Shown here: positions 19,173 to 36,958 of the stretch, piece by piece | Position numbering within the stretch: the stretch's first letter is position 1 | How the letters are laid out: every line of letters begins with the position of its first letter | Origin: an uncultured Pelagibacteraceae bacterium | Lineage (GTDB): Bacteria > Pseudomonadota > Alphaproteobacteria > Pelagibacterales > Pelagibacteraceae | NCBI GenBank assembly: GCA_902592935.1 | Contig: CACJGD010000002.1 | Span: 7,501-71,500 of the forward strand | Direction of reading: 5' to 3' | Length of the DNA stretch: 64,000 bases | The notes under the pieces: model-generated | Seen by the model: only the letters and a program-made list of their open reading frames with translations | Database searches by the model: none | What the model was told of the DNA's origin: nothing | Made by a program: the position numbers and the translations under genes

Positions 19173-20126
19173 ATGAAAACAATTTTAGTCACAGGTGGCT
19201 CGGGATACAAAGGTAGTGTTTTAATTCCAAAATTATTAAAAAAATATAAAGTAATTTCGATAGATACAGAATGGTTTGGTAAAAATTTAAAATCTCATCC
19301 TAATTTAAGAATAATTAATTTAGACATAAGAAATATTAGTAAAATTTCTATGAGAAATGTTGATTGCATTATTCATTTAGCATCTATAGCTAATGACACC
19401 ATGTCAGAACTAGATAAGAATCTTAGTTGGGAAATTTCTGCTTTATCAACACAGTTATTACTAGAAAAAGCAATAAAAGATGGAGTAAAAAGATTTATAT
19501 ATGCTTCATCAGGATCAGTTTATGGAATTAAAAAAGAGAAAAAAGTAATAGAGACTTTATCTTTAAAACCAATATCTTTATATAATAAAGCAAAGATGTG
19601 CACTGAAAGAATTATCCAATCTTACAAGGATAAGATTGAAATTTTTATAGTAAGACCTGCTACTGTTTGTGGGTATTCTCCAAGAATGAGATTTGATATA
19701 TCTGTTAACGCGTTAACAATTAATGCTCTTACAAAAAAAAAAATTATAGTTTTTGGTGGTTCTCAAATTAGACCTAATATTCATATTGATGATATAACCG
19801 ATTTATATTTATTTTTAATTAAAACAAGAAAAAAATTTACTGGAATCTACAATGCAGGATTTGAAAATATTTCAATAAAATCTATGGCCAAAATAATTCA
19901 AAAGAAATTAAAATGTAAAATTAAAATTATTAGAGACTTTACAGATCCCAGAAGTTATAGATTGGATTCTTCAAAACTTACCAAAATTGGATTCAAACCA
20001 AAAAAAGGAATAAATAACGCAATAGAAGATATAATTAAAATGTTCAACGATGGATATATAAAGGATGAACCAATTAATCATTCAGTAAAATGGTTAAAAA
20101 AAGTAATTAAAAAGAAAAATATATGA
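19173..20126 (+). CDS. NAD-dependent sugar epimerase/dehydratase (extended SDR)
   Basis: This is a canonical extended SDR of 317 residues. It has the NAD loop TGGSGYKGSVL near residues 7-17, IIHLASIANDTMS, the serine strand YASSGSVYG near residue 112 and the YNKAK catalytic Tyr/Lys near residue 139. VRPATVCGYSPRMRFD and RPNIHIDDI are typical substrate-domain motifs of UDP-glucose 4-epimerase-like and NDP-sugar epimerase proteins. Its end overlaps the legB start by four bases, so it is translationally coupled to the legionaminic acid genes. Whether it acts in that pathway or in block b is unclear. Confidence 0.85.
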   Translation: MKTILVTGGSGYKGSVLIPKLLKKYKVISIDTEWFGKNLKSHPNLRIINLDIRNISKISMRNVDCIIHLASIANDTMSELDKNLSWEISALSTQLLLEKAIKDGVKRFIYASSGSVYGIKKEKKVIETLSLKPISLYNKAKMCTERIIQSYKDKIEIFIVRPATVCGYSPRMRFDISVNALTINALTKKKIIVFGGSQIRPNIHIDDITDLYLFLIKTRKKFTGIYNAGFENISIKSMAKIIQKKLKCKIKIIRDFTDPRSYRLDSSKLTKIGFKPKKGINNAIEDIIKMFNDGYIKDEPINHSVKWLKKVIKKKNI

Positions 20127-21097
20127 AAAAAATCTTAATCACAGGAGGTTGTGGATTTATTGGATCTCATTTGGCAGAAAAACTAGTTTCTAAAAATTAC
20201 AAAGTAACAGTTTTTGATAGATATAATATCGATAATGATTTTGGTAATTTAGAAAATAGTGAATTAAAAAAAAATATAGAAATTAAACTTGGAGATATAA
20301 GAGATTACGACTCAGTCTTGGACGCGATATCTGGTCATGATACTGTATTTCATTTGGCTGCTTTAATTGGAATTCCGTACTCATATGTTTCACCCATGGG
20401 ATATATAAAGACCAATGTTGAGGGAACATACAATGTATTGGAGGCATCTAGGAAAAAGGGAATAAAACAAATTGTGATTACATCCACCAGTGAAACATAT
20501 GGATCGGCACAATATGTTCCTATTGACGAAAATCATCCAAAGGTGGGTCAATCACCATATGCAGCAACTAAAATTTCAGCCGATCAATTGGCATTAAGTT
20601 ATTATAAAAGCTTCAATTTACCAGTTAAAATTGCAAGACCTTTTAATACATATGGACCAAGACAATCAGCAAGAGCAATTATTCCAACTGTAATAAGTCA
20701 AATTATTGGAGGTAATAAATTTCTTGATTTAGGAAATCTTTCTCCAACTAGAGATCTTACATATGTTGATGATACTTGTGAGGGTTTAATTCAATTAGCA
20801 AAATCTAAAAAGTTATTTGGGCATGAAGTAAACATTGGATCAAAAACTGAGATATCCGTTGAACAATTAGTAAAAAAAATAAAAAAAATAATGAAATCAA
20901 ATATTAAAATTAAAATAAATAAAAAAAAGATACGTCCAAAGTTAAGTGAAGTAGATAGACTGGTTTGTGATAATAAAAAAATTAAAAAATATACTAAATG
21001 GAAGCCAAAAACAAATATTGATACAGGGTTAAGAAAAACAATAAAATGGATTGAGTCAAATAAAATTAAATTTAAATTTAAAAATTATAACATATGA
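20123..21097 (+). CDS. legB: LegB-like NAD-dependent GDP/UDP-GlcNAc 4,6-dehydratase
   Basis: The enzyme would make the 4-keto-6-deoxy intermediate at the first committed step of legionaminic acid synthesis. It has TGGCGFIGSHLAEKL at residues 6-20, STSETYGSAQYVP near 124-136 with the dehydratase Thr and Glu, and YAATK near 146-150. RPFNTYGPRQSARAIIPTVI is the segment characteristic of LegB and related 4,6-dehydratases. It is followed by legC with a four-base overlap, the same gene order as in Campylobacter and Legionella legionaminic loci. In Campylobacter the substrate is GDP-GlcNAc. The presence of ptmE downstream in this window supports the same use here. Confidence 0.9.
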   Translation: MKKILITGGCGFIGSHLAEKLVSKNYKVTVFDRYNIDNDFGNLENSELKKNIEIKLGDIRDYDSVLDAISGHDTVFHLAALIGIPYSYVSPMGYIKTNVEGTYNVLEASRKKGIKQIVITSTSETYGSAQYVPIDENHPKVGQSPYAATKISADQLALSYYKSFNLPVKIARPFNTYGPRQSARAIIPTVISQIIGGNKFLDLGNLSPTRDLTYVDDTCEGLIQLAKSKKLFGHEVNIGSKTEISVEQLVKKIKKIMKSNIKIKINKKKIRPKLSEVDRLVCDNKKIKKYTKWKPKTNIDTGLRKTIKWIESNKIKFKFKNYNI

Positions 21098-22236
21098 TCA
21101 GTTTAAATGAGCCAAATATAAGCAAAAAGGATATTAAATCTGTTATTAAAACTTTAAATGATAATTGGGTATCTTCATCAGGTCCAATTGTAAATATGTT
21201 TGAAAAAAAAATATGTAAATATTCTTCAGTTAAAAATGCAGTTGCTTTTGTAAATGCTACCTCAGCACTTCAGATAGCACTTAAGCTAATTGGAACAAAC
21301 AACAAAACTGAGATAATAGTACCAACAGTAACATTTGTTGCACCGGTTAATGCTATCATTTACAACTCAGGTTCACCTATATTTATGGATGTTGATAAAT
21401 ATTTTAATATTGATCTTAATAAAACATTGGAATTTTTAGATAAAAAAACAAAATTTAAAAATGGATATACTATTAATAAAAAAACAGGAAAAAAAATTTT
21501 AGCTATAATTATAGTTCATGTATGGGGCAATGCTGTTTTTTTAGATGATATAAAAAAAATATGTAAAAGAAAAAATATCAAAATAATTGAAGATGCTTCT
21601 GAAAGTTTAGGCACCAAGTATAAATTAGGTAAATTTAAAAATCATATGACAGGCACGGTCGGTGATATTGGTATTTATTCATTTAATGGAAATAAAATTA
21701 TTACTGGTGGAAATGGAGGCGTTTTAGTAACTAATAATTCCAAAATTGCAAAAAAGGCAAAATATTTAAGTAGCCAGGCTATTGACGACAGTGATTTTTA
21801 TATACATAAAAAAATAGGTTATAATTTTAGGCTATCGAGTTTAAATGCAGCCTTATGCATATCACAATTGAGTAATTTAAATAATTTTTTAAAAAAAAAA
21901 AAATCAATCTACAATGAATATAAAAAAAAGCTTATTAATAATTTAAATTTTCGATTAGTTGAGCCACCACTTTATGCAAATAATAACCATTGGATGAATG
22001 TAGTTATTGTTAGAAAAGGGAAATTAAAAAGCTTAATAGAAAGAATGAAAAAAAAGAGGATACAGGCTAGGGCTATGTGGCTACCTAATCATCTACAAAA
22101 ACCCTATAGAAAATATGAAACTTATAAGATTTCTTTTGCTAATTATTTAAAAAATACTGCTCTATGCATTCCCTCAAGTACAAACTTATCCGCATTAAAT
22201 ATTAATAAAGTATTATCTGCATTAAAAAATGATTAA
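21094..22236 (+). CDS. legC: LegC-like aminotransferase
   Basis: LegC transaminates the 4-keto sugar made by LegB. The N terminus EPNISKKDIKSVIKTLNDNW and the following WVSSSGPIV are close to the LegC subfamily, as are VPTVTFVAPVNAIIYNSG and the FMDVDKYFNID strand. The Asp motif is IIEDASESLGTKYK and the Schiff-base lysine is in SFNGNKIITGGNGG. It is 380 residues long, normal for the family. A run of 13 adenines near 21891-21903 encodes four lysines in the C-terminal half. It overlaps legB by four bases and the acetyltransferase gene by eight. Confidence 0.92.
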   Translation: MISLNEPNISKKDIKSVIKTLNDNWVSSSGPIVNMFEKKICKYSSVKNAVAFVNATSALQIALKLIGTNNKTEIIVPTVTFVAPVNAIIYNSGSPIFMDVDKYFNIDLNKTLEFLDKKTKFKNGYTINKKTGKKILAIIIVHVWGNAVFLDDIKKICKRKNIKIIEDASESLGTKYKLGKFKNHMTGTVGDIGIYSFNGNKIITGGNGGVLVTNNSKIAKKAKYLSSQAIDDSDFYIHKKIGYNFRLSSLNAALCISQLSNLNNFLKKKKSIYNEYKKKLINNLNFRLVEPPLYANNNHWMNVVIVRKGKLKSLIERMKKKRIQARAMWLPNHLQKPYRKYETYKISFANYLKNTALCIPSSTNLSALNINKVLSALKND

Positions 22237-22825
22237 GTTAGTTTTGATTGGAGCTGGGGGACATGCAAAATCTTGTTTTGAAGTAATAAACAAAATTAAA
22301 AAAATTAAAATAGTTGGTTGTATAGCTGAAAAATCAAACAAAAAGTTTTATTATTTAGGTAAAGATAAAGATTTACCAAGTGTTAGAAAAAAATATAAAC
22401 ATGCCCATTTAGCAATTGGATTTATCAAGAATTATAAGTTGAGGCTTAAAATTTTGAAAAAATTAAAAAATTTAAAATATATAATGCCTACAATTATTTC
22501 AAATAACTCAATTGTATCTAAAAACTCAAAAATTGGGGCAGGAACAATTGTAATGAATTATTGCATAGTAAATTATGATGCTCAAATTGGTGATAATACA
22601 ATAATAAACAATAGAGCTTTGATTGAGCATGACGTTGTTATTGGTTCAAACTGTCATATATCTACATCCGTTACAGTTAATGGGAACTGTAAAATTGGAA
22701 ATAATACTTTTATTGGAAGTGGCACAGTTATAGATAACGGAGTTAGCATTGGTAAAAATTGCATTATTGGGTCAGGCTTAATAATAAAAAAAAATATAAA
22801 AGATAATGAGATCAAAAAAAAATAA
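22229..22825 (+). CDS. neuD: NeuD/PglD-family acyltransferase, probable LegH role
   Basis: The N-terminal 75 residues form a small nucleotide-sugar-binding Rossmann-like domain (LVLIGAGGHAKSCFEVI). A left-handed beta-helix of hexapeptide repeats follows (IVSKNSKIGAGTIVMNYCIV, DNTIINNRALIEHDVVIG and so on). The catalytic His lies in LIEHDVVIG near residue 132. This architecture is that of PglD and NeuD. In legionaminic acid synthesis the N-acetyl group at C4 of the 6-deoxy sugar is added by LegH, and position between legC and legI argues for that role. An O-acetyltransferase role is the alternative. It overlaps legI by 20 bases. Confidence 0.8.
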   Translation: MIKLVLIGAGGHAKSCFEVINKIKKIKIVGCIAEKSNKKFYYLGKDKDLPSVRKKYKHAHLAIGFIKNYKLRLKILKKLKNLKYIMPTIISNNSIVSKNSKIGAGTIVMNYCIVNYDAQIGDNTIINNRALIEHDVVIGSNCHISTSVTVNGNCKIGNNTFIGSGTVIDNGVSIGKNCIIGSGLIIKKNIKDNEIKKK

Positions 22826-23828
22826 TATTTACATCATTGCCGAAATAGGCGTTAATCACAATGGAAGTCTAAGCAAAGCAAAAGAGATGATTTTAAAATC
22901 AAAAGAAGCTGGAGCAAATGCTGTAAAAATTCAATCGTATGTTGCTAGCGAGGTTGTAATTAAGACAGCTCAAATTGCAAAATATCAAAAAATAAATATT
23001 AAAAACAGAATTTTAAAACAATACGATCTATTAAAAAAATATGAGCTTAATTTTAATCAGCAAAAAAAATTATATAGGTTTTCAAAGTTACATAAGATAG
23101 ATTTTTTATCCTCAGCCTTTGATCTAGATAGTCTAAATTTCATTAAAAAATTAAATTTAAGATATTTCAAAATCCCCTCAGGTGAAATTACAAATTTTCA
23201 GCTTTTAAGCAAATATTCAGAAATGAAAAAAAAAATTATTCTTTCTACTGGCATGTCAAATCTTAATGAGATTAGGAATGCATTAAAAGTTTTGCTTAAG
23301 AAAAAAAATGTCCTAAAAAATATTACTCTTCTTGCCTGCAACACTGATTATCCAACGAAAATTTCAGACTTAAACCTACGCTCTATAAAATTTTTAAAGA
23401 AAAAATTTAAATGTAATGTTGGTTATTCAGATCACTCTATAAGTATAGAGGCTCCTGCTCTTGCTGTAGCCTTAGGCGCAAAAGTAATTGAAAAACACGT
23501 TACACTAGATAGAAAACTTAGTGGACCAGATCATAAGGCAAGTTTAAATTTTAAAGAATTTAAGAGAATGATAGATTTAATCAGAAAAACTGAAATAATG
23601 CTTGGACGTGAAGATAAAAAAGTTAGTAAAAGTGAAAATAAAAATATATTTTTTTCTAGAAGATCCATTTTTGCAAAAACAAAAATAATAAAGGGTGATA
23701 TTTTCACGCATAATAATTTAGTATGTAAAAGACCATTAGAAGGAGTTCCAGCAAGTAAATATTTAGTTTACTTGGGAAAAAAGTCAAAATATAACTACTC
23801 CACTGATGATATTATAAAGAAGCAATAA
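22806..23828 (+). CDS. legI: LegI/NeuB-family nonulosonic acid synthase
   Basis: The enzyme condenses phosphoenolpyruvate with a 2,4-diacetamido-hexose to give legionaminic acid. The NeuB barrel runs from IAEIGVNHNGSLSKAKEMI through FKIPSGEITN, STGMSNLNEI and CNTDYPT to GYSDHS. GAKVIEKHVTLDR with GPDHKASL supplies metal and PEP ligands. The C-terminal 60 residues (RRSIFAKTKIIKGDIF and VPASKYL) are the antifreeze-like SAF domain. At 340 residues it is full length. Neighbouring legB and legC favour legionaminic over N-acetylneuraminic or pseudaminic acid. It ends six bases before the radical SAM gene. Confidence 0.92.
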   Translation: MRSKKNNIYIIAEIGVNHNGSLSKAKEMILKSKEAGANAVKIQSYVASEVVIKTAQIAKYQKINIKNRILKQYDLLKKYELNFNQQKKLYRFSKLHKIDFLSSAFDLDSLNFIKKLNLRYFKIPSGEITNFQLLSKYSEMKKKIILSTGMSNLNEIRNALKVLLKKKNVLKNITLLACNTDYPTKISDLNLRSIKFLKKKFKCNVGYSDHSISIEAPALAVALGAKVIEKHVTLDRKLSGPDHKASLNFKEFKRMIDLIRKTEIMLGREDKKVSKSENKNIFFSRRSIFAKTKIIKGDIFTHNNLVCKRPLEGVPASKYLVYLGKKSKYNYSTDDIIKKQ

Positions 23829-23834
23829 ATAGAT

Positions 23835-25934
23835 ATGAAAAAAAAAATTTTTTTATGTGATTTAACATACGATACTATAATTTTAGTTTCAGATACCATT
23901 CCAATTAATATTGGATTTATTGGGTCTTATCTTTTAAAACACCTAAAGGATGAAGTCGAAGTCGAATTATTTAAATATCCAAAAGATGCAATTGAAAAAA
24001 TTAAAAAAGAAAAACCAGATGTTGTTGCTTTAAGCAATTATTCCTGGAATAGTAATCTATCTGATTTTGTCTCAAAAATTGCTTTGGAAGTTAATCCAAA
24101 CTGTATCACAGTACAAGGTGGAACAAATTTCCCCCATGATAAAACTCAACAAGAATTATTTTTAAAACAAAAAAAATATGTAGATATTTATACTTTGCTA
24201 GAGGGTGAAAAATCTTTTTTAAATATAATTAAAAAATTAATTGATGTTAATGGGGATAAATCTAAAATGTTTGATAATCCTATTGATGGATGTGTATTTA
24301 TTCATCCCAAGTCAAAAAAGTTTACATCAGGTAATTATTTAGAGAGAATTAATGATTTGGATGAAATTCCATCTCCATATTTAAATGGTATGCTTGATAA
24401 ATTTTTTGATGGCATGCTAACACCATTTATAGAAACAAATAGGGGATGTCCTTTTACATGTTCTTTTTGCCATACTGGAAATGATTATTTTCATAAACTT
24501 AAAAAATTTTCTGCAGATAGGGTTAGAGATGAAATAGAATATATTGGAAAAAAATGTCATAAACTTGGTATCACTAATTTGCATTTAGCTGATGTTAATT
24601 TTGGCATGTATCCTACAGATAAACTTACATGTGAGTACCTTTTGGAATCAAAAAACAAATATAGCTGGCCATTACAAATTATGGCTACCACTGGAAAAAA
24701 TAGTAAAAAAAGAGTGATGGAAATCACAAGTATTCTTGGAAATATGTTTTCAGTAAATATGTCGATGCAATCAATGGATCCTGTTGTTTTAAAAAATATT
24801 AAGCGTGAAAATATTAAAAATTCTCACATTATTGAAGTCAACCAGCATTTACGTGATCAAGGTAGATCAACAAAAGCAGAACTAATTGTTCCATTGCCAG
24901 GAGAATCTAAAGATACATTTGTTAATGGATTAAATACTGCTTTAGAGGCGGGTGCATCTACAGTAACTATTTATACATTAATGATGCTTCAAGGAACCGA
25001 GTTTAAGTTACCATCTTATAGAAAACAATTTGATTATATAACGAAGTTTAGAATAGTTCCTTTAAATTTTGGTGAATATGATAATGAAAGAATATTTGAT
25101 TATGAGGAAGTTGGAGTTGGTACAAAAGACTTATCTTTTGACGACTATTTATACATTCGTTCCCTTGCGCTAATGGTGGAATCTTTGTTTAATGGAAAAC
25201 CTTTTGATGAATTTTTTATGTATGCTAACCAAAATGGTATTAGACCAGGATATTTATTGAAGTATTTATTAGATAATATCGAAAAATCAGATAAACAAAT
25301 AAGAGAATTATTCTCTGATTTTACTGAGGAGACAAGAACAGAATTATGGGATTCAGAAGAAAAGCTAGTAAGTCATTACAAAAAAGATGAAAACTACAAA
25401 CTTCTAAAAGAAGGAAAAGTTGGTGGAAATCTTATTTATAAATATAAGTCTAGAAGTGTAATAGCTGCTAAAAAAAATTGGATAGACTTTATTTCTAATC
25501 AGATACAAGATATTTTAACAAAAAGATCTGAGAAAAATAATTTTGTGGGTGAAATTAGAAACTTAAATGTATTTTGCAACCAAAAACTAAAAGGTATGTT
25601 GGATGTAGAGGCTAACACAAGTACCTCTCAAGATGAATTTCAATATGATGTTTTAAAATGGATACATGATGGTTATTCAAAAAAACTATCTTTTTATAAA
25701 TTAGCAAAACCTAAAAAATATGTATTTGAATATACTGAGGAGCAATTAAAAAATAGAGTCGATTTATTTAAAAGATACGGAACTGATATAAATGCATTGT
25801 CTAAAATTATGACTAGAGTTTCAAATCTTGAGAGTCAATTCAGAAAAGTTAGAAATGAGGGAGAAGATACTTTGATCGATATTTATCCTCAAAAAATTGG
25901 TGATAGCTTTGTCAGGTATGCTATCGCAAATTAA
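23835..25934 (+). CDS. B12-binding radical SAM enzyme
   Basis: Residues 1 to about 140 look like the cobalamin-binding Rossmann domain of class B radical SAM proteins, with PDVVALSNYSWN, ITVQGGTNFP and YTLLEGEKSF marking successive strands. The radical SAM motif CxxxCxxC is Cys205, Cys209 and Cys212 in NRGCPFTCSFCHTGN, followed by a barrel to about 420. The final 250 residues are a large extension I cannot assign. The classical DxHxxG cobalamin-ligand motif is not evident, which is usual in this class. Enzymes of this class methylate unactivated carbons or do other rearrangements. Position after legI suggests a glycan substrate. A cobalamin riboswitch and uptake genes follow directly. Confidence 0.85.
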   Translation: MKKKIFLCDLTYDTIILVSDTIPINIGFIGSYLLKHLKDEVEVELFKYPKDAIEKIKKEKPDVVALSNYSWNSNLSDFVSKIALEVNPNCITVQGGTNFPHDKTQQELFLKQKKYVDIYTLLEGEKSFLNIIKKLIDVNGDKSKMFDNPIDGCVFIHPKSKKFTSGNYLERINDLDEIPSPYLNGMLDKFFDGMLTPFIETNRGCPFTCSFCHTGNDYFHKLKKFSADRVRDEIEYIGKKCHKLGITNLHLADVNFGMYPTDKLTCEYLLESKNKYSWPLQIMATTGKNSKKRVMEITSILGNMFSVNMSMQSMDPVVLKNIKRENIKNSHIIEVNQHLRDQGRSTKAELIVPLPGESKDTFVNGLNTALEAGASTVTIYTLMMLQGTEFKLPSYRKQFDYITKFRIVPLNFGEYDNERIFDYEEVGVGTKDLSFDDYLYIRSLALMVESLFNGKPFDEFFMYANQNGIRPGYLLKYLLDNIEKSDKQIRELFSDFTEETRTELWDSEEKLVSHYKKDENYKLLKEGKVGGNLIYKYKSRSVIAAKKNWIDFISNQIQDILTKRSEKNNFVGEIRNLNVFCNQKLKGMLDVEANTSTSQDEFQYDVLKWIHDGYSKKLSFYKLAKPKKYVFEYTEEQLKNRVDLFKRYGTDINALSKIMTRVSNLESQFRKVRNEGEDTLIDIYPQKIGDSFVRYAIAN

Positions 25935-25947
25935 TTTATAGAAAAAT

Positions 25948-25953
25948 TATAAT
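25948..25953 (+). promoter_or_regulatory. Candidate -10 box upstream of the cobalamin riboswitch
   Basis: A perfect TATAAT lies 14 bases after the stop of the radical SAM gene and about 30 bases before the first riboswitch stem. This is a sensible position for a transcript that begins just before the aptamer. No convincing -35 hexamer is seen 16-18 bases upstream. It would give the receptor gene its own transcript separate from the leg operon. Confidence 0.35.
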
Positions 25954-25984
25954 TTTTTGATAAATTCTAATAATACCGAATCTT

Positions 25985-26093
25985 GGTGGGGAATCAGTGC
26001 GTAATTCATTGGCTCTTCCTGGAACCGTAAAGTCGGAGTACCACCCGGTAAAGTCCACTGTTGAATGATGGCCAGGAAAAGTCTAATTCTACA
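25985..26093 (+). promoter_or_regulatory. Cobalamin riboswitch aptamer
   Basis: The pairing can be drawn by eye. The closing stem is GGTGG 25985-25989 with CCACC 26041-26045. A stem CAGTG 25995-25999 pairs with CATTG 26007-26011. A small hairpin has CCG 26025-26027 with CGG 26034-26036. A downstream hairpin pairs 26059-26069 with 26081-26093. Loop bases TTCCTGG 26016-26022 are exactly complementary to CCAGGAA 26072-26078, giving the kissing-loop contact that defines cobalamin riboswitches. The conserved GGGAA and the compact layout resemble the small Cbl-II type common in marine metagenomes. It lies in the 5' leader of a BtuB-like gene, which fits B12-repressed uptake. Confidence 0.9.
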
Positions 26094-26109
26094 ATGAAAA
26101 ATTAACAGA

Positions 26110-26137
26110 GGCATTAACTTAACGCCACGAAAGGGGC
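26110..26137 (+). promoter_or_regulatory. Riboswitch expression platform with alternative hairpins over the ribosome-binding site
   Basis: Two hairpins compete for the same GCC at 26124-26126. One pairs it with GGC 26110-26112 and extends through TTA/TAA. The other pairs it with GGC 26135-26137 and covers the purine-rich AAAGGGG at 26130-26136, the only good Shine-Dalgarno before the ATG at 26149. This would let ligand binding upstream switch translation of the receptor. No poly-T terminator follows, so translational rather than transcriptional control is favoured. The switch itself is inferred from pairing only. Confidence 0.5.
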
Positions 26138-26148
26138 AAAATAGTGCT

Positions 26149-28017
26149 ATGTTAAAATTTCTTATTATCCTGACTATAAATACTTTACTTATTAATATCT
26201 CATTTGCTGATAGTTTGAATGAACTTTATGATTGCTCTTGGGACAACAGGTCAAATACACCATGTTTAGAAATAAGCAAAAACTTATCAAATTCATCCAA
26301 ATTTTCTAAAACGGGAATAAATAAAATTGTTATATCAAAAGAAGAAATAGACCGTAGTGGAGCTGTAGATGTTATTGATCTTCTTAAAAATATTCCAGAT
26401 ATCAATATTACGCAAAGTGGTCCAAAAGGACAGCAAGCCTCAATTTTTTCACGGGGAACAGGATCAAATCATACTATTGTAATGATAAATGGTGTACCAA
26501 TTAATGACCAATCAACTACCCAAGGATTACATGATTTTGGTGTAGATTTTATTCAAACTATTCATCAAATTGAGATTTATCCCGGTTCATCAGCAACACA
26601 TTTTGGAACCAATTCAATTGGTGGAGCAATAAATATAATTCTTACAGGAGATTTTAAAGATAATTTTAAAGTTAACACCGATAAGAATGCAAATTACGAA
26701 TTAGCATTAAACAAAAATTATATATACGATAATTCTTCCCTCAACATGAAATTTGGTAGTGTTAAAAATAAAACCATAAGCGCCAGAGGTAATAGTGATG
26801 ATGAAAAAGATGGACTAGAAAATTATTCAGTAAATATAAATTATGAAAAATTTTTAAGAGATAACAATAGATTATACAATACAACGTATATCAGACAAAC
26901 GGTAGCTGCATACGATAATTCATCTACCAATCAAACTGGTTATGAAGGTGACAATAAGTTTGGTTCGTTTCAAATTGGATTAGAGAAAAAAGATAAAACA
27001 AAGAAAAAAAACTATATAATTTATTATAATATTTATGATAGGGAATATGATGAAAGAGGAACTATTGATACATATGAAAGTGAGGTCATAGGTATAAAGT
27101 ATGATTTTTCAAATATTTTAAATAATAGTTTTTCATATGGTTTAGGTTCGGAATATAAATATGATTGGGGTTATTTTGATAATAGAGGAAGTTATCAGGC
27201 ATCAACAAAAGGTAATTCGAATAATTTTTCACTTTATGGAAATGCTGGGATCAATTTAGGAAATAATTTTACCTTTTCTCTGTTTACAAGATCAGATATT
27301 CATAAACAGACAGGGTTAAATTCAACTTATAAAGTTAATTTAGATAAAAGATTTGAAAATTTTAATTTTGGAACAGCATTTATGACTGGTTTACGAAACC
27401 CTACTTTATACGAAATGTTTGGAACCGATAATTTTGGATATTCAGGAAATAGAGATTTAAAACCAGAAAAAAGCAACACAGCAGAAATATATTCAAATAT
27501 ATCTGTAAACGAAAATTTAAATTTTAAGGCAAGAGCATTTAGATCGAATATTGAAAATAATATAGAGTATATAAATAATAAATATTCTAATGATAATGAT
27601 GATGTAAATTTAAACCAATCTGGTATTAATTTTTTAATAGGTCTAAAAACTGATGATATTTCAGCAAATATATCATCCTCATTTTTAAGCACAAAAAAAG
27701 AAAATGGCTCTAGCCAAACAAGAAGACCAAAAAAGACACATAGTTTAAATCTTTATAAGACCTTAAATAATAAAATATTTGGTAATTATAATATCAATTT
27801 ATCTTATAAACATTATGGTAAGCATTATGACGTACATAGTTCTACATTTAATACTATTGAGATGGATAGTACCGATATATTAGATTTGATCATTACAAAA
27901 AAAATAAATCAGACAAATTATTTCTTAAAAGTTAGCAATTTATTAGATGAAAGTTATCAAAGACCTCATGGTTATAATCAGGAAAACAGAATAATCAAAT
28001 TTGGCTTTAAATACTAA
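26149..28017 (+). CDS. btuB: BtuB-like TonB-dependent outer-membrane receptor, probable B12 uptake
   Basis: A signal peptide covers residues 1-20 with likely cleavage after SFA. The plug domain at about 55-165 has SRGTGSNHTIVMINGVPIND, QIEIYPGSSATHFGTNSIGG and AINI, all standard TonB-receptor plug motifs. The rest is an alternating beta-barrel pattern ending in RIIKFGFKY with a terminal aromatic residue, the usual outer-membrane assembly signal. At 622 residues it is close to E. coli BtuB. The cobalamin riboswitch in its leader is the main evidence that it imports corrinoids. TonB, ExbBD and a BtuCDF transporter are not in this window. Confidence 0.88.
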   Translation: MLKFLIILTINTLLINISFADSLNELYDCSWDNRSNTPCLEISKNLSNSSKFSKTGINKIVISKEEIDRSGAVDVIDLLKNIPDINITQSGPKGQQASIFSRGTGSNHTIVMINGVPINDQSTTQGLHDFGVDFIQTIHQIEIYPGSSATHFGTNSIGGAINIILTGDFKDNFKVNTDKNANYELALNKNYIYDNSSLNMKFGSVKNKTISARGNSDDEKDGLENYSVNINYEKFLRDNNRLYNTTYIRQTVAAYDNSSTNQTGYEGDNKFGSFQIGLEKKDKTKKKNYIIYYNIYDREYDERGTIDTYESEVIGIKYDFSNILNNSFSYGLGSEYKYDWGYFDNRGSYQASTKGNSNNFSLYGNAGINLGNNFTFSLFTRSDIHKQTGLNSTYKVNLDKRFENFNFGTAFMTGLRNPTLYEMFGTDNFGYSGNRDLKPEKSNTAEIYSNISVNENLNFKARAFRSNIENNIEYINNKYSNDNDDVNLNQSGINFLIGLKTDDISANISSSFLSTKKENGSSQTRRPKKTHSLNLYKTLNNKIFGNYNINLSYKHYGKHYDVHSSTFNTIEMDSTDILDLIITKKINQTNYFLKVSNLLDESYQRPHGYNQENRIIKFGFKY

Positions 28018-28066
28018 TAATTTAATTTGTTTAATTACATATATTTTATTATAAAACTCTAATTAA

Positions 28067-28576
28067 ATGTATAGTTACATAAAAATATCAATAGGAATTC
28101 TGGCATTACTATCTTTAACAAGATTTATTCCACATCCACCAAACTTTACTAGTTTAATTGCATTAAGCTTTTATGTTCCAATAATTTTTGGAATAAAATT
28201 TTTGCCAATTTTATTACTTAGTTTTGTTTTTACTGACTTATTTATTGGATTCCATACATTAACATTTTTTACTTGGGGTAGCATTTGTGTGATAGCACTA
28301 ATTTCAAAATATTTTTCAAAAACTTTAATTTCAAGGTTTACAGGTGCAATCTCTGGGGCATTAATTTTTTTTATTATATCAAACCTAGGTGTGTGGTTAA
28401 TGGGTTCCTATGGTTATACTTTAAATGGTTTCATAAAATGCTATATTCTAGCAATTCCATTTTTTGGAAATACTTTGGTTTCAACAATAATTTATTCTTT
28501 TATTTTTGAAATTTTATACAAATATTCTAAAACAAATAATTTTAATAATTTTCTTATAAATTTATTTTCTAAATGA
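28067..28576 (+). CDS. DUF6580-type membrane protein, putative cobalamin-associated transporter
   Basis: This 169-residue protein has five or six hydrophobic segments. Near the N terminus is RFIPHPPNFTSLIALSFY, a motif I associate with the DUF6580 family of small membrane proteins that resemble ECF-type substrate-binding components. TDLFIGFHTLTFFTWGS follows in a loop. It lies 49 bases after the BtuB-like gene and presumably shares the riboswitch-controlled transcript, so inner-membrane corrinoid transport is a reasonable inference. Its last codons overlap the hisH start by four bases, which couples B12 uptake physically to the glycan amidotransferase genes. Confidence 0.65.
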   Translation: MYSYIKISIGILALLSLTRFIPHPPNFTSLIALSFYVPIIFGIKFLPILLLSFVFTDLFIGFHTLTFFTWGSICVIALISKYFSKTLISRFTGAISGALIFFIISNLGVWLMGSYGYTLNGFIKCYILAIPFFGNTLVSTIIYSFIFEILYKYSKTNNFNNFLINLFSK

Positions 28577-29199
28577 AAATAGGAATAGTTGATTATGAGT
28601 TAAATAATATTAACTCAGTTAAAAATGCATTGGATAGACTAGATTGTGAAAATCTTGTTATCAAAAAATTAAAAGATTTTAAATTAGTTGATGCCATAAT
28701 TTTACCAGGTGTAGGATCATATGGTGAAGCTATTTCCAAACTGAATAATTCTAAAATGTCTGAAAAAATTTATAACGAGGTTATAATTAAAAAAAAACCT
28801 TTTTTAGGTATCTGTTTAGGTATGCAGTTAATGTCAACAAATGGATATGAAGGAGGATTTTTTAAAGGACTAAATTTAATAAAAGGAGATGTAAAAAAAA
28901 TAAATGTAAAAAAAAAACTAAAGCTTCCCCATGTAGGATGGAATAATATTAAAATCATAAAAGAAAATCCTCTGTTTGAAGATATCAAAAATAACTCATG
29001 CTTTTATTTTGTGCATTCTTATAGTTATAATTGTAATAAGAGTAATATAACTTCGACAACAGATTATAGTACATCTGTTATATCTTCTATACAAAAAAAA
29101 AAAATATTTGGAGTTCAATTTCATCCAGAAAGAAGTCAAAAAAATGGAGAAATTTTAATTTCTAATTTTATAAAATTCTGTAATAAATCTCATGCTTAA
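28573..29199 (+). CDS. hisH: HisH-type glutamine amidotransferase, glycan-modifying paralogue
   Basis: A class I glutaminase with the full triad: Cys81 in GICLGM, and His184 and Glu186 in QFHPE. LPGVGSYGEA and LPHVGWNNIKI match HisH. No other histidine gene is present, and the next genes encode a HisF paralogue and two N-acetyl-sugar amidotransferases. It therefore most likely supplies ammonia for acetamidino-group formation, as HisH2 does with WbpG in Pseudomonas, rather than for histidine synthesis. A run of 12 adenines near 29092 lies just before the catalytic histidine codon. It overlaps both neighbours by four to eight bases. Confidence 0.85.
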   Translation: MKIGIVDYELNNINSVKNALDRLDCENLVIKKLKDFKLVDAIILPGVGSYGEAISKLNNSKMSEKIYNEVIIKKKPFLGICLGMQLMSTNGYEGGFFKGLNLIKGDVKKINVKKKLKLPHVGWNNIKIIKENPLFEDIKNNSCFYFVHSYSYNCNKSNITSTTDYSTSVISSIQKKKIFGVQFHPERSQKNGEILISNFIKFCNKSHA

Positions 29200-30052
29200 A
29201 AAAAGATTAATAGCTTCATTAATAATAAAAGATGGAATGTTAGTCCAAAGTATCAATTTTAAAAATTATTTACCTATTGGAAACCCAAAATATACAATAG
29301 AACTTATTTCTAAGTGGGATGTTGATGAAATTATTTTAATTGATATAGATTGCACGCCCAAAAATAAAAAATTTGATTTAAAAAAATTATCTGAATTTGC
29401 AAAGTTTACTTCTGTTCCATTGACAGTTGGAGGAGGAATAAAAGATATAAATGATGTAAAAAAAATAATTTCTGCAGGAGCAGATAAAGTTTGTATAAAT
29501 AGTATAATTTTTAAAAATTTTAATTTTATAAGCGAAATATCTAATTCTTTTGGCTCCCAATGTGTTGTTGTATGCCTAGATATTAAAAAAAAAAATTCTG
29601 AGTATAAGATTTATACCAACCAGGGAAAAACTTTAATTAATGAAAATATATATCTTTTTATAAAGAAAATTACTAATGCAGGTGCTGGAGAAATTTTACT
29701 TAATTTTATAGATAGAGATGGAAAAAGGAATGGTTTCGATACAAATTTTTTAAAAAAAATATGTATTGAGTCAAAAATTCCTATTATTGCAATGGGGGGT
29801 GCTGGAAAATATTCAGATTTTGTAAAACCTTTTATTAAAACGGAAGTATCTGCTCTAGCAGCTGCAAATATATTTCATTTTACTGAACACAGTACAATTT
29901 TAGCAAAAGCTCATATGTATAGAAATGGAATTGATGTAAGATTGAATAATGATGCTAGTTATAAATATAGAAATTTTGATAAAATGGGTAGATTATTAGC
30001 ATTAAATGCAAAAAATTTATCAAAACTTTTACTAAAACCTTATTCAAAATAA
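29192..30052 (+). CDS. hisF: HisF paralogue (AglZ/HisF2 type) for acetamidino modification
   Basis: The TIM barrel follows HisF closely, from KRLIASLIIKDGMLV through LTVGGGIKD and ADKVCINS to GAGEILLNFIDRDG and AMGGAGK. Compared with Thermotoga HisF numbering, the ammonia-gate residues Arg5, Glu46, Lys99 and Glu167 are all kept. The catalytic Asp11, however, is Ile11 here, while Asp130 (CLDIKK) remains. Loss of Asp11 should abolish imidazole-glycerol-phosphate cyclisation. It can still pair with HisH as an ammonia channel and then dock to a sugar amidotransferase. At 286 residues it is about 30 longer than HisF, with an extra basic C-terminal tail. Confidence 0.85.
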   Translation: MLKKRLIASLIIKDGMLVQSINFKNYLPIGNPKYTIELISKWDVDEIILIDIDCTPKNKKFDLKKLSEFAKFTSVPLTVGGGIKDINDVKKIISAGADKVCINSIIFKNFNFISEISNSFGSQCVVVCLDIKKKNSEYKIYTNQGKTLINENIYLFIKKITNAGAGEILLNFIDRDGKRNGFDTNFLKKICIESKIPIIAMGGAGKYSDFVKPFIKTEVSALAAANIFHFTEHSTILAKAHMYRNGIDVRLNNDASYKYRNFDKMGRLLALNAKNLSKLLLKPYSK

Positions 30053-30054
30053 AT

Positions 30055-31341
30055 ATGAACTATTGTTCTAGATGTTTATATCCTTCGAATCATCCCTATG
30101 GAATTATTTTTAATGAAAATAATTTGTGTTCTGGATGTATAATTCATGAAGAAAAAAATGTAATAGATTGGAAAAAAAAATTTAAAATTTTAAAAAAATT
30201 AGTTTGGGAATATAAAAAAAGAAATAGTGGTCAAAATTTTGATTGTATTGTTCCTGTAACAGGAGGTTCAGATAGTTTTTTTATTCTTCATACCGTAAAA
30301 AAGGTTTTGGGTCTAAATCCATTATTAGTTAATTATAACTCGCATTTTAACACAAAAATTGGAATTAGAAATTTATCAAGATTAGTTACTTCTTTTGATT
30401 GTGATATGGTTACTTCTACATTATCTCCTGATTTATTAAAAAAAATAACGAGACATACACTAAAAAAATATGGCACAATGTACTGGCAAGTTCTTTCTGG
30501 ATTTACAACTTTTCCTGTTCAAACTGCTGTAAAGTATAAAATTCCGTTAATAATATGGGGTGTTCATGGCTGGTCGGAGCAAACAGGAATGTTTTCACAT
30601 CATGATCAAGCTGAAATGACACAAAGATGCAGAAGAGAACACGCTCTATTAGGCATAAAAGCTGAAGATTTAATTGATAAAAAATCAAAAATATCAAGAC
30701 GTGATATCCAACCTTTTATTTACCCTTACGATAACGAGTTAGAAGCAGTTGGTGTAAGAGGGTTATATTTAAGTAATTTCATAAGATGGGACTCGAAAAA
30801 GCAACATGAAAAAATGATTAAGATTTATCATTATGAAACTGAGGAACAACAAAGAACATTTAATACTTATGAAGACGTACATTGTATGCATTCTGCTGGG
30901 ATTCATGATTATATTAAATTTCTTAAATTAGGTTATTCAAAAGTTCATGACCACGCAACACGAGAAATAAGACTTCAAAGAATGACTAGATCGGAGGGGA
31001 TCAGAATGGTTAAAAAGTATATGTATAAAAAGCCAAAAGATATTAATATTTTTTCAGAATGGATAGAATTACCAGAAAAAAAAATTTTTGATCAAATAAA
31101 TAAATTCAGAGACAAAAAAATTTGGCGGTATCAAAATAATAAGTGGAAACTTTTAGATTGTGTTTCTAAACATAAGGAAAACAAGTTTAATGCAAAAGTT
31201 AAATTGAGAATCAAAGAAGATTGTAAATTTATTCAAACAAAATTAAATGAAGAAAAAACATTTAATGAAAAAAACTATACATTAATGGGAAGAAGTTATT
31301 ACGATAAAAATAATTATGGAGCTGTTAAAGATAAACCCTAA
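30055..31341 (+). CDS. N-acetyl sugar amidotransferase (WbpG/PseA-like), copy 1
   Basis: The N terminus has a zinc-ribbon-like set Cys4, Cys7, Cys25 and Cys28, then an ATP pyrophosphatase (PP-loop) domain. The PP-loop reads TGGSDS at residues 69-74 instead of the usual SGGKDS, so the loop lysine is a serine. WGVHGWSEQTGMFSHHDQAEM and VRGLYLSNFIRWDSKKQ match the WbpG/PseA family, whose members convert N-acetyl to acetamidino groups on sugars using ammonia. At 428 residues it is longer than the next gene's product because of a C-terminal extension of about 60 residues. HisH and HisF immediately upstream complete the system. Confidence 0.82.
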   Translation: MNYCSRCLYPSNHPYGIIFNENNLCSGCIIHEEKNVIDWKKKFKILKKLVWEYKKRNSGQNFDCIVPVTGGSDSFFILHTVKKVLGLNPLLVNYNSHFNTKIGIRNLSRLVTSFDCDMVTSTLSPDLLKKITRHTLKKYGTMYWQVLSGFTTFPVQTAVKYKIPLIIWGVHGWSEQTGMFSHHDQAEMTQRCRREHALLGIKAEDLIDKKSKISRRDIQPFIYPYDNELEAVGVRGLYLSNFIRWDSKKQHEKMIKIYHYETEEQQRTFNTYEDVHCMHSAGIHDYIKFLKLGYSKVHDHATREIRLQRMTRSEGIRMVKKYMYKKPKDINIFSEWIELPEKKIFDQINKFRDKKIWRYQNNKWKLLDCVSKHKENKFNAKVKLRIKEDCKFIQTKLNEEKTFNEKNYTLMGRSYYDKNNYGAVKDKP

Positions 31342-31349
31342 ATAAAATT

Positions 31350-32462
31350 ATGAATTATTGTAAAAAATGTGTAATGCCTGATACAAAACCAGGTTTAAAA
31401 TTTGATACGTCAGGAGTTTGTTTTGCATGCATAAATGCAGAGAAAAAAACTAAAATAAATTGGCAAAAAAGGAATAAGCTTCTTCATAAAATATGCAATG
31501 AAATAAGAGGCAAAAATAAAAATGGCTATGATTGTGTTGTACCAGTTAGTGGCGGAAAAGATAGTATGTATCAGACTTATATGATGAGTAAAATTTATAA
31601 TTTAAAAGTACTTGCTGTCAGTGTTCCACAACATTGTCAAACTGAGGAAGGCATTGAAAATTTAAATTCACTGGTCACAAATTTAAATGTAGATTTAATT
31701 AAGGTAACTATAAGACACAAAACCCATAAAAAATTAAGACTTATAGGCTTGAAAGAAATGGGAAACCCAAGTTATTCAGAGCATAAATCAGTTTTTGCTG
31801 GTGTAACAAGAGTAGCTTTAAATTTTAAAGTTCCATTAGTAGTTTGGGGGGAAGATATAGGAGTTGAATTTGGAGGTAATGTTGATAAAAAATCTTCTAA
31901 AGAAGGTTTAGCAGATGACCTTATAAATAACGATTTGTTTGCTGATGTTTCTTTTTCGGAGTTTGTTAAAAATAGAATTCCTAAAAATGAATTATATTTT
32001 TATAATCATCCAGATATAAAAGAATTTAAAAATCATAAAGTAAAAACTATATATCTAAGTCATTTTCATAATTGGGATGGTTACAAAAATTTTAAACTCG
32101 CCATGAAATTTGGATTTACTGGAAGAAAAAAGGGTCCTTTATCAGGAAATATTTTAAACTATGACAATATAGATGAAAAATTATGTGAAATGCACATATG
32201 GATTAAGATGCTTAAGTATGGCTTTTGGAGACCAACAGACCAATCTTGTTACCATATATGGAATAGAAGAATGACTAGAGAGGAAGGAGTAGAAAATGTT
32301 TTGAAAAAACAATATGAATTTCCTTATGAGTATCTTAAAGATTTTTTAGACTACCACTCATTAAAAGAGGGAGAATTTATGGATGAATTAGAGAATTGGA
32401 GAAATAAAGATATTTGGGTAAAAAAAAATAGAAAATGGAGATTAAAAAACGAAATTTCGTAA
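31350..32462 (+). CDS. N-acetyl sugar amidotransferase (WbpG/PseA-like), copy 2
   Basis: This 370-residue paralogue of the preceding gene has Cys4, Cys7, Cys24 and Cys27 and a canonical PP-loop SGGKDS at residues 67-72. VVWGEDIGVEFGG and TIYLSHFHNWDGYKNF are family motifs, and TRMTREEGVENV near the C terminus matches the TRxEG segment in copy 1. Two copies may act on two different N-acetyl groups, or on two sugars, or form a hetero-complex. Its canonical loop makes it the better bet for ATP-dependent activation. The neighbouring SDR gene begins inside or immediately after its stop. Confidence 0.85.
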   Translation: MNYCKKCVMPDTKPGLKFDTSGVCFACINAEKKTKINWQKRNKLLHKICNEIRGKNKNGYDCVVPVSGGKDSMYQTYMMSKIYNLKVLAVSVPQHCQTEEGIENLNSLVTNLNVDLIKVTIRHKTHKKLRLIGLKEMGNPSYSEHKSVFAGVTRVALNFKVPLVVWGEDIGVEFGGNVDKKSSKEGLADDLINNDLFADVSFSEFVKNRIPKNELYFYNHPDIKEFKNHKVKTIYLSHFHNWDGYKNFKLAMKFGFTGRKKGPLSGNILNYDNIDEKLCEMHIWIKMLKYGFWRPTDQSCYHIWNRRMTREEGVENVLKKQYEFPYEYLKDFLDYHSLKEGEFMDELENWRNKDIWVKKNRKWRLKNEIS

Positions 32463-34453: not shown

Positions 34454-35121
34454 TTGTTTCAATACATCAACCCCAATATTTACCTTGGGATAACTTTTTT
34501 AGAAAAATAAAAAAATCTGATTATTTTATTTATTTAGATAATGTTGAGTTTCAAAAAAATGGGCTACAAAATAGGAATCAAATCAAGACTGCATCGGGCT
34601 CTACTTGGCTTACAGTTCCAGTAAAGCATAATTTAGGTCAAAAAATATGTGATGTTGAAATAGATAATTCAAAAAATTGGAGACGTAAGCACTGGAAAAC
34701 AATATGTGAAAATTATAGCAAAAGTTCATATTTTAACGAGTTTTTCTTAGTATTTGAAAATATTTTTAAATCGAGTTGGATTAATTTATCTGAATTAAAT
34801 ATTAAATTAATTTCAGAAATTTTAAGCATATTAAATATTAAAACTAAAATGTTAAAAGCCAGTTCATTAAATGTTGACGGTAATTCCTCAGAATTACTAA
34901 TTAATTTATGCAAAGAAGTTGATTGTAAAATATATTTATCAGGAGAAGGGGGAAAAAATTATCTAGAACTTGATAAATTCGAAACGGCAGGCATTAAAGT
35001 AATTTTTGAGAAAAATACTGAGCAAAAACCTTATAAACAAAATCATGCTAATCTAGGATTTGTTCAAAATCTTTCTGTCATCGATAACATTTTCAACAAT
35101 GGTAACAAGGTATTGGATTAA
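34450..35121 (+). CDS. WbqC family protein
   Basis: The N terminus IVSIHQPQYLPWDNFFRKI and the following YLDNVEFQKNGLQNRNQIKT are diagnostic of the WbqC-like family, and WRRKHWKTICENYSKSSYF is a further family segment. At 223 residues the length is normal. WbqC/WbmP proteins occur widely in O-antigen loci, often beside nonulosonic or amino-sugar genes, and their biochemical role is not firmly known. Its position directly before legG is consistent. The stop and the legG start overlap by one base. Confidence 0.88.
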   Translation: MIVSIHQPQYLPWDNFFRKIKKSDYFIYLDNVEFQKNGLQNRNQIKTASGSTWLTVPVKHNLGQKICDVEIDNSKNWRRKHWKTICENYSKSSYFNEFFLVFENIFKSSWINLSELNIKLISEILSILNIKTKMLKASSLNVDGNSSELLINLCKEVDCKIYLSGEGGKNYLELDKFETAGIKVIFEKNTEQKPYKQNHANLGFVQNLSVIDNIFNNGNKVLD

Positions 35122-36281
35122 TGACTAAAAAGAGAAAAATTTTAGCTATCACAGGTATAAGATCAGATTATGATCTAATGTCAAATTTATTTATTAAATT
35201 GAGTAATGATCTAAATATTGATTTTGGATTAATTGTTACAGGAGCTCATTTAGAAAAAAAATACGGTTACTCTTATAAAGAAATTAAAAAAGACAAAATT
35301 AAAATTATTGGAAAAGTAAAAAGCTATATTGATGGAAATGGACTCTCACCAAGAGTGTTAAGCTTGTTTAAACAAGGATCTAAAATGGTAAATATTGTTA
35401 AAAAATTTAATCCAGATATTGTTTTAACAATGGGTGATAGAGAAGAGTCAATTGTTATTTCATTGATTGCGACTTATCTCAATATACCAATAGCTCATAT
35501 AAGTGGTGGCGATAAAGTAGTAGGAAATATTGATGATCATATAAGGCATGCTGTATCTAAATTAGCTCATATTCACTTTCCAACAAGTTTAGACAGTAAA
35601 ATGAGACTTATTATGATGGGCGAAAATAAAAAAAATATATTTAATTTTGGAAACCCAGGCTTAGATAGACTGAGAAATGAAAAAAAAATTACATTAAGTG
35701 ATCTTAGTAAAAAAATACAATTTAATATAAATAAAAATGAAAAATATTTTGTATGCATACAACATTCATTGTCTTCTGAATTTAAAAAATCTTATGATCA
35801 AATGTATTTAACACTAAATTGTTTGAAAAAAATGAAAATCAAAACAATTATAATTTATCCCAATAGTGATGCCGGCAGTTCAGGTGTAATTTCTGCGATT
35901 AGTCGTTTTAAAAATGTAAAGTATTTCTGTATTAAAAAAAATTTACCAAGGAATATTTTTGTAAATTTGCTTAGAAATGCCAGGTGTTTAATTGGAAATT
36001 CAAGTGCGGGTATCTTAGAAACGCCATTTTTAGGTTTGCCATCAATTAATGTTGGAAATAGACAATTAAAAAGAAACCATGCTAATAATACCATTTTTAT
36101 TCCAAGTGAAAAAAAAATATTAATTAAAACTATAAGCATGATAAATAATGACAAGTATTATAAAAAAATTGCTAAAAAAAGTAATATTTTTGGTTTAGGA
36201 AATTCGTCCAATAAAATTATTAAAGTTTTAAAATCTATAAAAATAAATAAAAAGTTGTTTAATAAAGAAATAATATATTAA
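35121..36281 (+). CDS. legG: LegG/NeuC-type hydrolysing nucleotide-sugar 2-epimerase
   Basis: This enzyme removes the nucleotide and inverts C2 to give 2,4-diacetamido-2,4,6-trideoxy-mannose, the substrate of LegI. The N terminus AITGIRSDYDLMSNLFIKL is typical of NeuC/LegG, with TGAHLEKKYGYS, TMGDREESI, ISGGDKVVGNIDDHIRHA and GNSSAGILETPFLGLPSINVG. At 386 residues it is full length. It lies about 11 kb from legB-legC-legI, separated by the B12 and amidotransferase genes. It begins a second leg block that ends with legF and ptmA. Confidence 0.92.
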   Translation: MTKKRKILAITGIRSDYDLMSNLFIKLSNDLNIDFGLIVTGAHLEKKYGYSYKEIKKDKIKIIGKVKSYIDGNGLSPRVLSLFKQGSKMVNIVKKFNPDIVLTMGDREESIVISLIATYLNIPIAHISGGDKVVGNIDDHIRHAVSKLAHIHFPTSLDSKMRLIMMGENKKNIFNFGNPGLDRLRNEKKITLSDLSKKIQFNINKNEKYFVCIQHSLSSEFKKSYDQMYLTLNCLKKMKIKTIIIYPNSDAGSSGVISAISRFKNVKYFCIKKNLPRNIFVNLLRNARCLIGNSSAGILETPFLGLPSINVGNRQLKRNHANNTIFIPSEKKILIKTISMINNDKYYKKIAKKSNIFGLGNSSNKIIKVLKSIKINKKLFNKEIIY

Positions 36282-36283
36282 TA

Positions 36284-36958
36284 ATGATTAAATCAAATGT
36301 ACTAGTTATAGCACCTCATCCAGATGATGAGACACTTGGATGTGGTGGTACAATATTAAAACATGTCGGAAAAAAAGATAAAGTTCATTGGTTGATTATG
36401 ACTAATTTTGAATTATTAAAAAATATTAAAAAAAAATTGATTATTAAAAAAAACAAAGAAATTTTACAGGTTAAAAAAAGTTATAATTTTAAGAGTTTGA
36501 CACGTTTGAACTTTGAACCAGCTAAATTAGATTTAATTCCTAAAAAAAATATAATTGAAGAGATTCAAAAAGTAGTTAATAAGTTAAAACCAAATATATT
36601 ATATATACCTTATGGTGGTGATGCTCATTCAGATCATAAGATAACTTTTGAAGCATCATGTGCAATCTCTAAATCATTCAGAAATAAGTCAATTAAAAAA
36701 GTTATAGTTTATGAAACACCATCCGAAACGGACTTTAATTTAAATCCAAAAGTTAAAAATTTTAAACCCAATCTTTGGGTAGATATAACTAAGCACATAA
36801 GCAAAAAGCTAAATATTTTAAGAAAATATAAATCTGAGATTGGAAAACATCCTTTTCCAAGAAGTTTGGAAAATATCAAGTCTTATGCAAAAATTAGAGG
36901 TTCAGTGAGCGGTCATAAATTTGCAGAGTCATTTCAGATAATTAAGGAAATTTTATAA
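36284..36958 (+). CDS. PIG-L family N-deacetylase
   Basis: The zinc-binding PHPDDE motif is in VIAPHPDDETLGCGG at residues 9-23, and the third-ligand segment is PYGGDAHSDHK near residue 107. These define the PIG-L/LmbE family, which removes N-acetyl groups from amino sugars. At 224 residues the length is typical. It sits between legG and ptmE, two genes adjacent in Campylobacter, so it may act on a legionaminic acid intermediate or its GlcNAc precursor. Freeing an amine here could permit a different N-acyl group. That role is inferred from position only. Confidence 0.85.
   Translation: MIKSNVLVIAPHPDDETLGCGGTILKHVGKKDKVHWLIMTNFELLKNIKKKLIIKKNKEILQVKKSYNFKSLTRLNFEPAKLDLIPKKNIIEEIQKVVNKLKPNILYIPYGGDAHSDHKITFEASCAISKSFRNKSIKKVIVYETPSETDFNLNPKVKNFKPNLWVDITKHISKKLNILRKYKSEIGKHPFPRSLENIKSYAKIRGSVSGHKFAESFQIIKEIL

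What the first reader, a model, noticed from the sequence alone, without database searches (positions are those of the whole stretch)
23835..28576. A B12-binding radical SAM enzyme sits directly before a B12-regulated uptake pair inside a glycan island
Three independent signals align in 4.7 kb: a class B radical SAM protein, a riboswitch whose kissing loop is exactly complementary, and a BtuB-like receptor plus DUF6580-like membrane protein. If the enzyme needs cobalamin, the island carries cofactor supply together with the modification that consumes it. I know of no described case of a surface-glycan island carrying its own B12 uptake. The pair may instead have been inserted by chance.
Basis: partly seen in the sequence, partly recalled or inferred. 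Interest (0 to 1): 0.75.

Follow-up and report, generated by a model that had tools for sequence, protein, structure and literature searches.

The report
B12 uptake paired with B12-using methylase
In this ocean SAR11 bacterium a set of genes that likely imports vitamin B12 sits directly beside a gene for an enzyme predicted to use B12 to add methyl groups to a surface sugar, and because the same pairing recurs in related genomes in which the usual B12 enzymes searched for were not found, it would explain what some of these very abundant bacteria want B12 for.

Summary
At 23835-28576 lie a class B (B12-binding) radical SAM protein whose predicted fold matches the cobalamin-dependent methylases TokK and CysS over nearly its full length, an AdoCbl-II riboswitch (83.9 bits) with a 7/7 Watson-Crick L5-L13 kissing loop, a BtuB-like receptor, and a DUF6580 protein predicted to have the S-component fold of the B12 importer BtuM. 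It is not a one-off. Among 397 Pelagibacteraceae genomes 76 carry the uptake cassette; 72 of these encode a class B radical SAM protein. By one and the same domain search it is 68 of 76 against 34 of 321 without the cassette. In 34 of 76 cassette loci the two are immediate neighbours, in all four orientations and with 15 radical SAM subfamilies. In the 63 cassette genomes searched I found no MetH, methylmalonyl-CoA mutase, above-cut-off NrdJ, QueG or PduO. I conclude that in these SAR11 lineages B12 is most likely imported to serve class B radical SAM enzymes; the window's enzyme probably methylates a legionaminic-acid-type sugar. Function is untested, phylogeny uncorrected, and 4 of 76 cassette genomes show no partner.

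The parts
23835..25934 (+). class B (cobalamin-binding) radical SAM protein, TokK/CysS/KedN5-like, predicted methylase; CxxxCxxC at residues 205-212
25973..26051 (+). AdoCbl-II cobalamin riboswitch aptamer (RF01689)
26016..26022 (+). L5 loop, 5' partner of the kissing loop (UUCCUGG)
26072..26078 (+). L13 partner (CCAGGAA), exact complement of L5
26149..28017 (+). BtuB-like TonB-dependent outer-membrane receptor
28067..28576 (+). DUF6580 membrane protein, predicted S-component fold (BtuM/ThiT-like); likely inner-membrane B12 importer
20123..21097 (+). LegB-like 4,6-dehydratase (island context)
   Evidence: 448.8 bits, cut-off 475
21094..22236 (+). LegC-like aminotransferase (context)
   Evidence: 387.9 bits, cut-off 420
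22229..22825 (+). NeuD-family sugar acetyltransferase (context)
22806..23828 (+). NeuB-family nonulosonic acid synthase, directly before the radical SAM gene
28573..29199 (+). HisH-like glutamine amidotransferase (name HisH by context); its ATG overlaps the DUF6580 stop
29192..30052 (+). HisF-like protein (His_biosynth; context)
30055..31341 (+). WbuX-family N-acetyl sugar amidotransferase 1 (context)
31350..32462 (+). WbuX-family N-acetyl sugar amidotransferase 2 (context)
35121..36281 (+). UDP-GlcNAc 2-epimerase family protein (context)
36958..38004 (+). CBS plus nucleotidyltransferase, PtmE-like (context; the PtmE name is recalled)
38005..38706 (+). cytidylyltransferase, NeuA-like (context; the NeuA name is recalled)

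Best explanation
This is a SAR11 (Pelagibacteraceae) gene module in which a riboswitch-headed vitamin B12 uptake cassette, likely importing cobalamin, stands next to the enzyme that is predicted to consume it, a class B radical SAM protein that would methylate a surface sugar. Predicted working: BtuB brings cobalamin through the outer membrane; DUF6580, a predicted solitary S-component-fold protein working like BtuM, would bring it through the inner membrane in place of BtuCDF; the AdoCbl-II riboswitch would turn uptake down when cobalamin is plentiful through the L5-L13 kissing loop; and methylcobalamin regenerated from SAM would let the radical SAM enzyme add one or more methyl groups to an unactivated carbon of a legionaminic-acid-type precursor or its N-acyl/amidino group. 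Shown here: the genes, the riboswitch and its covarying kissing loop, the recurrent co-occurrence and adjacency, the predicted folds, and the absence of hits to the usual B12 enzymes searched for. Inferred: transport, regulation, cofactor use, substrate and reaction. The wider claim is that in these SAR11 lineages B12 is imported mainly or only for class B radical SAM enzymes.
Confidence: 0.72

Rival explanations
1. The cassette is a generally mobile B12-uptake unit that happens to land in the same hypervariable region as radical SAM genes; there is no functional tie.
For: 28 of 76 cassette loci have no class B radical SAM gene in the held stretch; neighbours are diverse; one Pelagibacteraceae locus carries the pair close to 16S rRNA (L198).
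Against: 34 of 76 immediate adjacency in four orientations with 15 subfamilies; 47 of 76 within 5 kb against 17 expected even inside a 100-kb island; 72 of 76 cassette genomes hold such an enzyme.
Confidence: 0.13
2. B12 is taken up for another, unrecognised enzyme or for remodelling/scavenging, and class B radical SAM genes are only secondary users.
For: 4 of 76 cassette genomes have no class B radical SAM protein found; weak PF02310 hits near 1e-4 in many genomes were not identified.
Against: MetH, MCM, PduO, QueG 0/63 each and NrdJ 0/63 over cut-off; the 150 listed PF02310 hits sit in frames of at most 708 aa, none MetH-sized.
Confidence: 0.12
3. The receptor and DUF6580 import a different corrinoid, cobinamide or a metal complex, and the riboswitch senses that.
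For: BtuB score is below the equivalog cut-off (154.8 against 599.7); S-component folds carry many vitamins.
Against: Cobalamin riboswitch directly upstream with a covarying kissing loop; best-scoring solved fold for DUF6580 is BtuM with hydroxocobalamin (tied within 1 with the next row); strong link to B12-domain enzymes.
Confidence: 0.05

Closest known systems
TokK / CysS (KedN5-type cobalamin-dependent radical SAM methylases)
   Different: 21-22% identity; KedN5 model score 204 against a cut-off of 700; sits in a nonulosonic-acid gene cluster, not an antibiotic cluster (the latter recalled)
BtuM, solitary S-component-fold B12 importer
   Different: 12% identity; no invariant cysteine ligand, instead an invariant RxxPHPxNF motif; no sequence match to a solved structure
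env8-type AdoCbl-II riboswitch before btuB
   Same: RF01689 aptamer, L5-L13 kissing loop (env8 mechanism from PMC10907184, passages read)
   Different: In env8 the ribosome-binding site lies in the L13 loop; here the L13 partner is about 70 nt before the btuB start, so the expression platform differs
BtuB-BtuCDF uptake feeding MetH/MCM/NrdJ
   Same: Outer-membrane step and riboswitch control
   Different: No convincing BtuC-like permease (only weak FecCD hits); DUF6580 instead; the consumers found are class B radical SAM enzymes

Membership tests
AdoCbl-II cobalamin riboswitch (RF01689) | covariance-model match over the gathering score | tested here: met
   83.9 against 36.5 bits
AdoCbl-II cobalamin riboswitch (RF01689) | L5-L13 kissing loop kept by covariation | tested here: met
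   7/7 in the window; 56 of 61 with CAGG partner, 5 of 61 with compensatory CGAG/CGGG
AdoCbl-II cobalamin riboswitch (RF01689) | binds cobalamin and represses btuB | not testable with these tools
   needs bench work
class B (cobalamin-binding) radical SAM enzymes | N-terminal B12-binding domain plus radical SAM domain | tested here: met
   PF04055 48.6 bits; PF02310 E 9e-7 but 29.1 bits, under its 32.1 cut-off; full-length fold match to TokK
class B (cobalamin-binding) radical SAM enzymes | CxxxCxxC 4Fe-4S motif | tested here: met
   C205, C209, C212 invariant in 50 sequences
class B (cobalamin-binding) radical SAM enzymes | cobalamin bound and used | not testable with these tools
   needs purified protein
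KedN5 subfamily (NF033712) | score over the curated cut-off | tested here: not met
   204.1 against 700 bits; filed as KedN5-like only
BtuB (TIGR01779) | plug and TonB-dependent receptor barrel domains | tested here: met
   PF07715 and PF00593 over cut-off
BtuB (TIGR01779) | equivalog cut-off | tested here: not met
   154.8 against 599.7 bits; BtuB-like only
BtuM / ECF S-component fold | S-component fold | tested here: met
   the 15 best rows by Z (8.8-14.2) are titled BtuM, S-component, ThiT, RibU, FolT, ECF or other transporter, including cobalt/transition-metal ones; next row 7.6
BtuM proper | cysteine ligand to cobalt (Cys80 in BtuM) | tested here: not met
   no invariant or nearly invariant Cys in 59 DUF6580 sequences; works-like claim only

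The most novel reading that the evidence does not exclude
SAR11 bacteria import vitamin B12 only to run class B radical SAM methylases that decorate their surface sugars: uptake cassette and enzyme are repeatedly assembled into one cofactor-plus-consumer module in the variable genome, making B12 in the ocean a nutrient for surface diversification rather than for methionine synthesis.
Probability: 0.45. Interest if true: 0.88.

Novelty: new variant of a known kind. Interest (0 to 1): 0.74.

Why it matters
SAR11 is called B12-auxotrophic and rose in relative abundance on B12 supply in one of three ocean experiments (PMC9296465, passages read), yet is reported to lack both methionine synthases (PMC12478193, passages read), so its use for B12 has been unclear; the first paper also says it is unknown whether SAR11 btuB is regulated by B12. 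This report offers a concrete, testable answer: a cobalamin riboswitch in 61 of 397 family genomes, before btuB where I looked, and class B radical SAM enzymes as the apparent consumers. It also suggests a role for DUF6580 (no paper in the library names it) as a B12 importer, and links a family of predicted methylases to legionaminic-acid-type sugars across phyla (no library paper holds both 'radical SAM' and 'legionaminic acid').

Tried and rejected
Kissing loop, first test: I took the first hairpin (P4) for P5 and found chance-level complementarity (4.90 against 4.88); repeated with the right hairpin. NrdJ: 57 of 63 genomes give sub-cut-off hits; read as class I because a NrdB-like ORF follows in L190 (only that locus was read, the NrdB name is by eye). 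FecCD: weak hits in 46 of 63 (14 over cut-off), mostly 267-288 aa frames, read as not BtuC, not verified. Viral copies: 9 loci, only short 22-42% segments, not followed. Chance insertion: tested by adjacency and island null, rejected. A riboswitch search of ten radical SAM loci (L003-L012) with flanks of at most 1.5 kb gave none at gathering score. Paper searches (titles and abstract starts seen) showed no description of this pairing; subscription papers and preprints are not held.

Rows dropped before counts: A1 holds 50 of 58 radical-SAM-like ORFs (8 outside the class B cluster left out). The 63 genomes are 63 of the 76 cassette genomes; 13, mostly fragmentary or low-completeness, were left out. 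A2 used 14 and A4 40 of the 120 listed homologues. A3 used the window and 58 of 66 listed DUF6580 ORFs. One search scanned 133 neighbours, up to two of 150-560 aa per locus. One search lists only its 150 best matches but gives the best E per matching genome; one search uses those. An earlier tally (66 of 76 against 25 of 321) used only listed hits. Not counted: in G188 a contig-end DUF6580 piece lies beside a class B radical SAM gene (L236), while its riboswitch locus is on another contig.

Full report
What is there. The window lies on a 93.9-kb contig of a 0.94-Mb, 75% complete genome; a genome of the same family bears the label Pelagibacteraceae (G075, whose 221,297-bp contig is that of L197), so this is SAR11. 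The claims about the anatomy hold: the 699-aa class B radical SAM protein, the AdoCbl-II riboswitch, its exactly complementary kissing loop, the BtuB-like receptor, the DUF6580 protein and the glycan setting. The genes run in one direction: the NeuB-family gene ends at 23828, the radical SAM gene is 23835-25934, the aptamer starts 38 bp later, btuB is 26149-28017, DUF6580 28067-28576, and its stop overlaps the ATG of a HisH-like gene followed by HisF-like and two WbuX-family genes.

The pairing is recurrent. In 397 family genomes the riboswitch is in 61, DUF6580 in 69, either in 76. I fetched stretches around the cassette for 75 genomes and added the window. Of these 76 loci, 48 hold a gene of the class B radical SAM cluster, 34 with no ORF of 90 aa or more between it and the cassette. 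All four orientations occur among the 34 (5'-side same strand 13, 5'-side opposite 9, 3'-side opposite 7, 3'-side same 5), with 15 subfamilies at 40% identity. 49 of 50 of these proteins match Radical_SAM and 48 match B12-binding; identity to the window's enzyme is 15-63%. The next most frequent neighbour clusters are in 34, 17 and 13 loci. Among the 24 loci of the window's own enzyme family, uptake genes lie within the held flank in 7 of 9 Pelagibacteraceae/Pelagibacter-labelled loci (L196-L200, L202, L204; not L203, L207) and in none of the 15 others (of these 15 only L201, L205, L206 and L208-L212 were also scanned for riboswitches). Some of these loci are the same contigs as in the 76.

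Genome level. By the B12-binding-domain search at E < 1e-5, 68 of 76 cassette genomes and 34 of 321 others score; in genomes at least 90% complete 13 of 16 and 8 of 124. Four more cassette genomes (G083, G141, G151, G389) hold a member of the class B cluster in the fetched locus (L185, L154, L137, L156), L137 being a contig-end fragment. So 72 of 76: 48 in the cassette locus and 24 elsewhere, the 24 checked and, with others, by Pfam (43 of 43 with both domains). The four without are G121 (4.2-kb contig), G230, G260 and G386. These tests treat species as independent, which they are not; the varied orientations and subfamilies are the better argument for repeated assembly.

No other B12 use found. 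In 63 of the 76 genomes, MetH, methylmalonyl-CoA mutase, PduO adenosyltransferase and QueG are not found (0/63 each), NrdJ never passes its cut-off, and the 150 listed B12-binding hits sit in frames of at most 708 aa. The same five searches ring in 7-11 of 14 control genomes. [quoted passage not shown] PMC9296465 (passages read) calls SAR11 B12-auxotrophic and says it is unknown whether its btuB is regulated by B12. The present data give a candidate answer to both points. Other cobalamin enzymes (for example ethanolamine ammonia-lyase) and the CobA/BtuR adenosyltransferase were not searched for.

Limits. Most genomes are incomplete; ligand binding, transport and methylation are untested; in 6 of 48 loci the enzyme lies behind the cassette on the same strand and would be repressed along with it; and genes around the cassettes are not always glycan genes. 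I rate the supply-and-consumer reading 0.72, the 'only use of B12' version 0.45.

Noticed in passing
window 13332-14489: A second radical SAM gene in the same island, without a B12-binding domain hit; function not examined.
   Followed up: no
window 8866-10883: A pyruvate-dehydrogenase E1 alpha/beta-like pair inside the glycan island, next to a dTDP-glucose 4,6-dehydratase-like gene.
   Followed up: no
window 28573-28576: The DUF6580 stop overlaps the start of the HisH-like gene, so the B12 riboswitch may also influence the HisH-HisF-WbuX genes downstream.
   Followed up: no
L116, L135, L168, L175, L177, L183, L184: A SPASM-type radical SAM protein of about 387 aa lies near the B12 cassette in 7 of 76 loci (domains checked for the L116 copy only).
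   Followed up: no
L198 9234-10707: The KedN5-like gene with its B12 cassette lies about 3 kb from the 16S rRNA gene and two tRNAs.
   Followed up: no
G002, G046, G029: Some family genomes of about 1 Mb carry 7-8 B12-binding-domain hits each, a large battery for a streamlined genome.
   Followed up: no
window 26052-26148 and 61 related leaders: About 60 nt behind the Rfam aptamer look strongly conserved in the leaders printed (GGCCAGGAAAAGTCTARTTCT...), beyond the 81-nt model; a CAGNGGC-type strand before the start codon is present in 57 of 61.
   Followed up: partly
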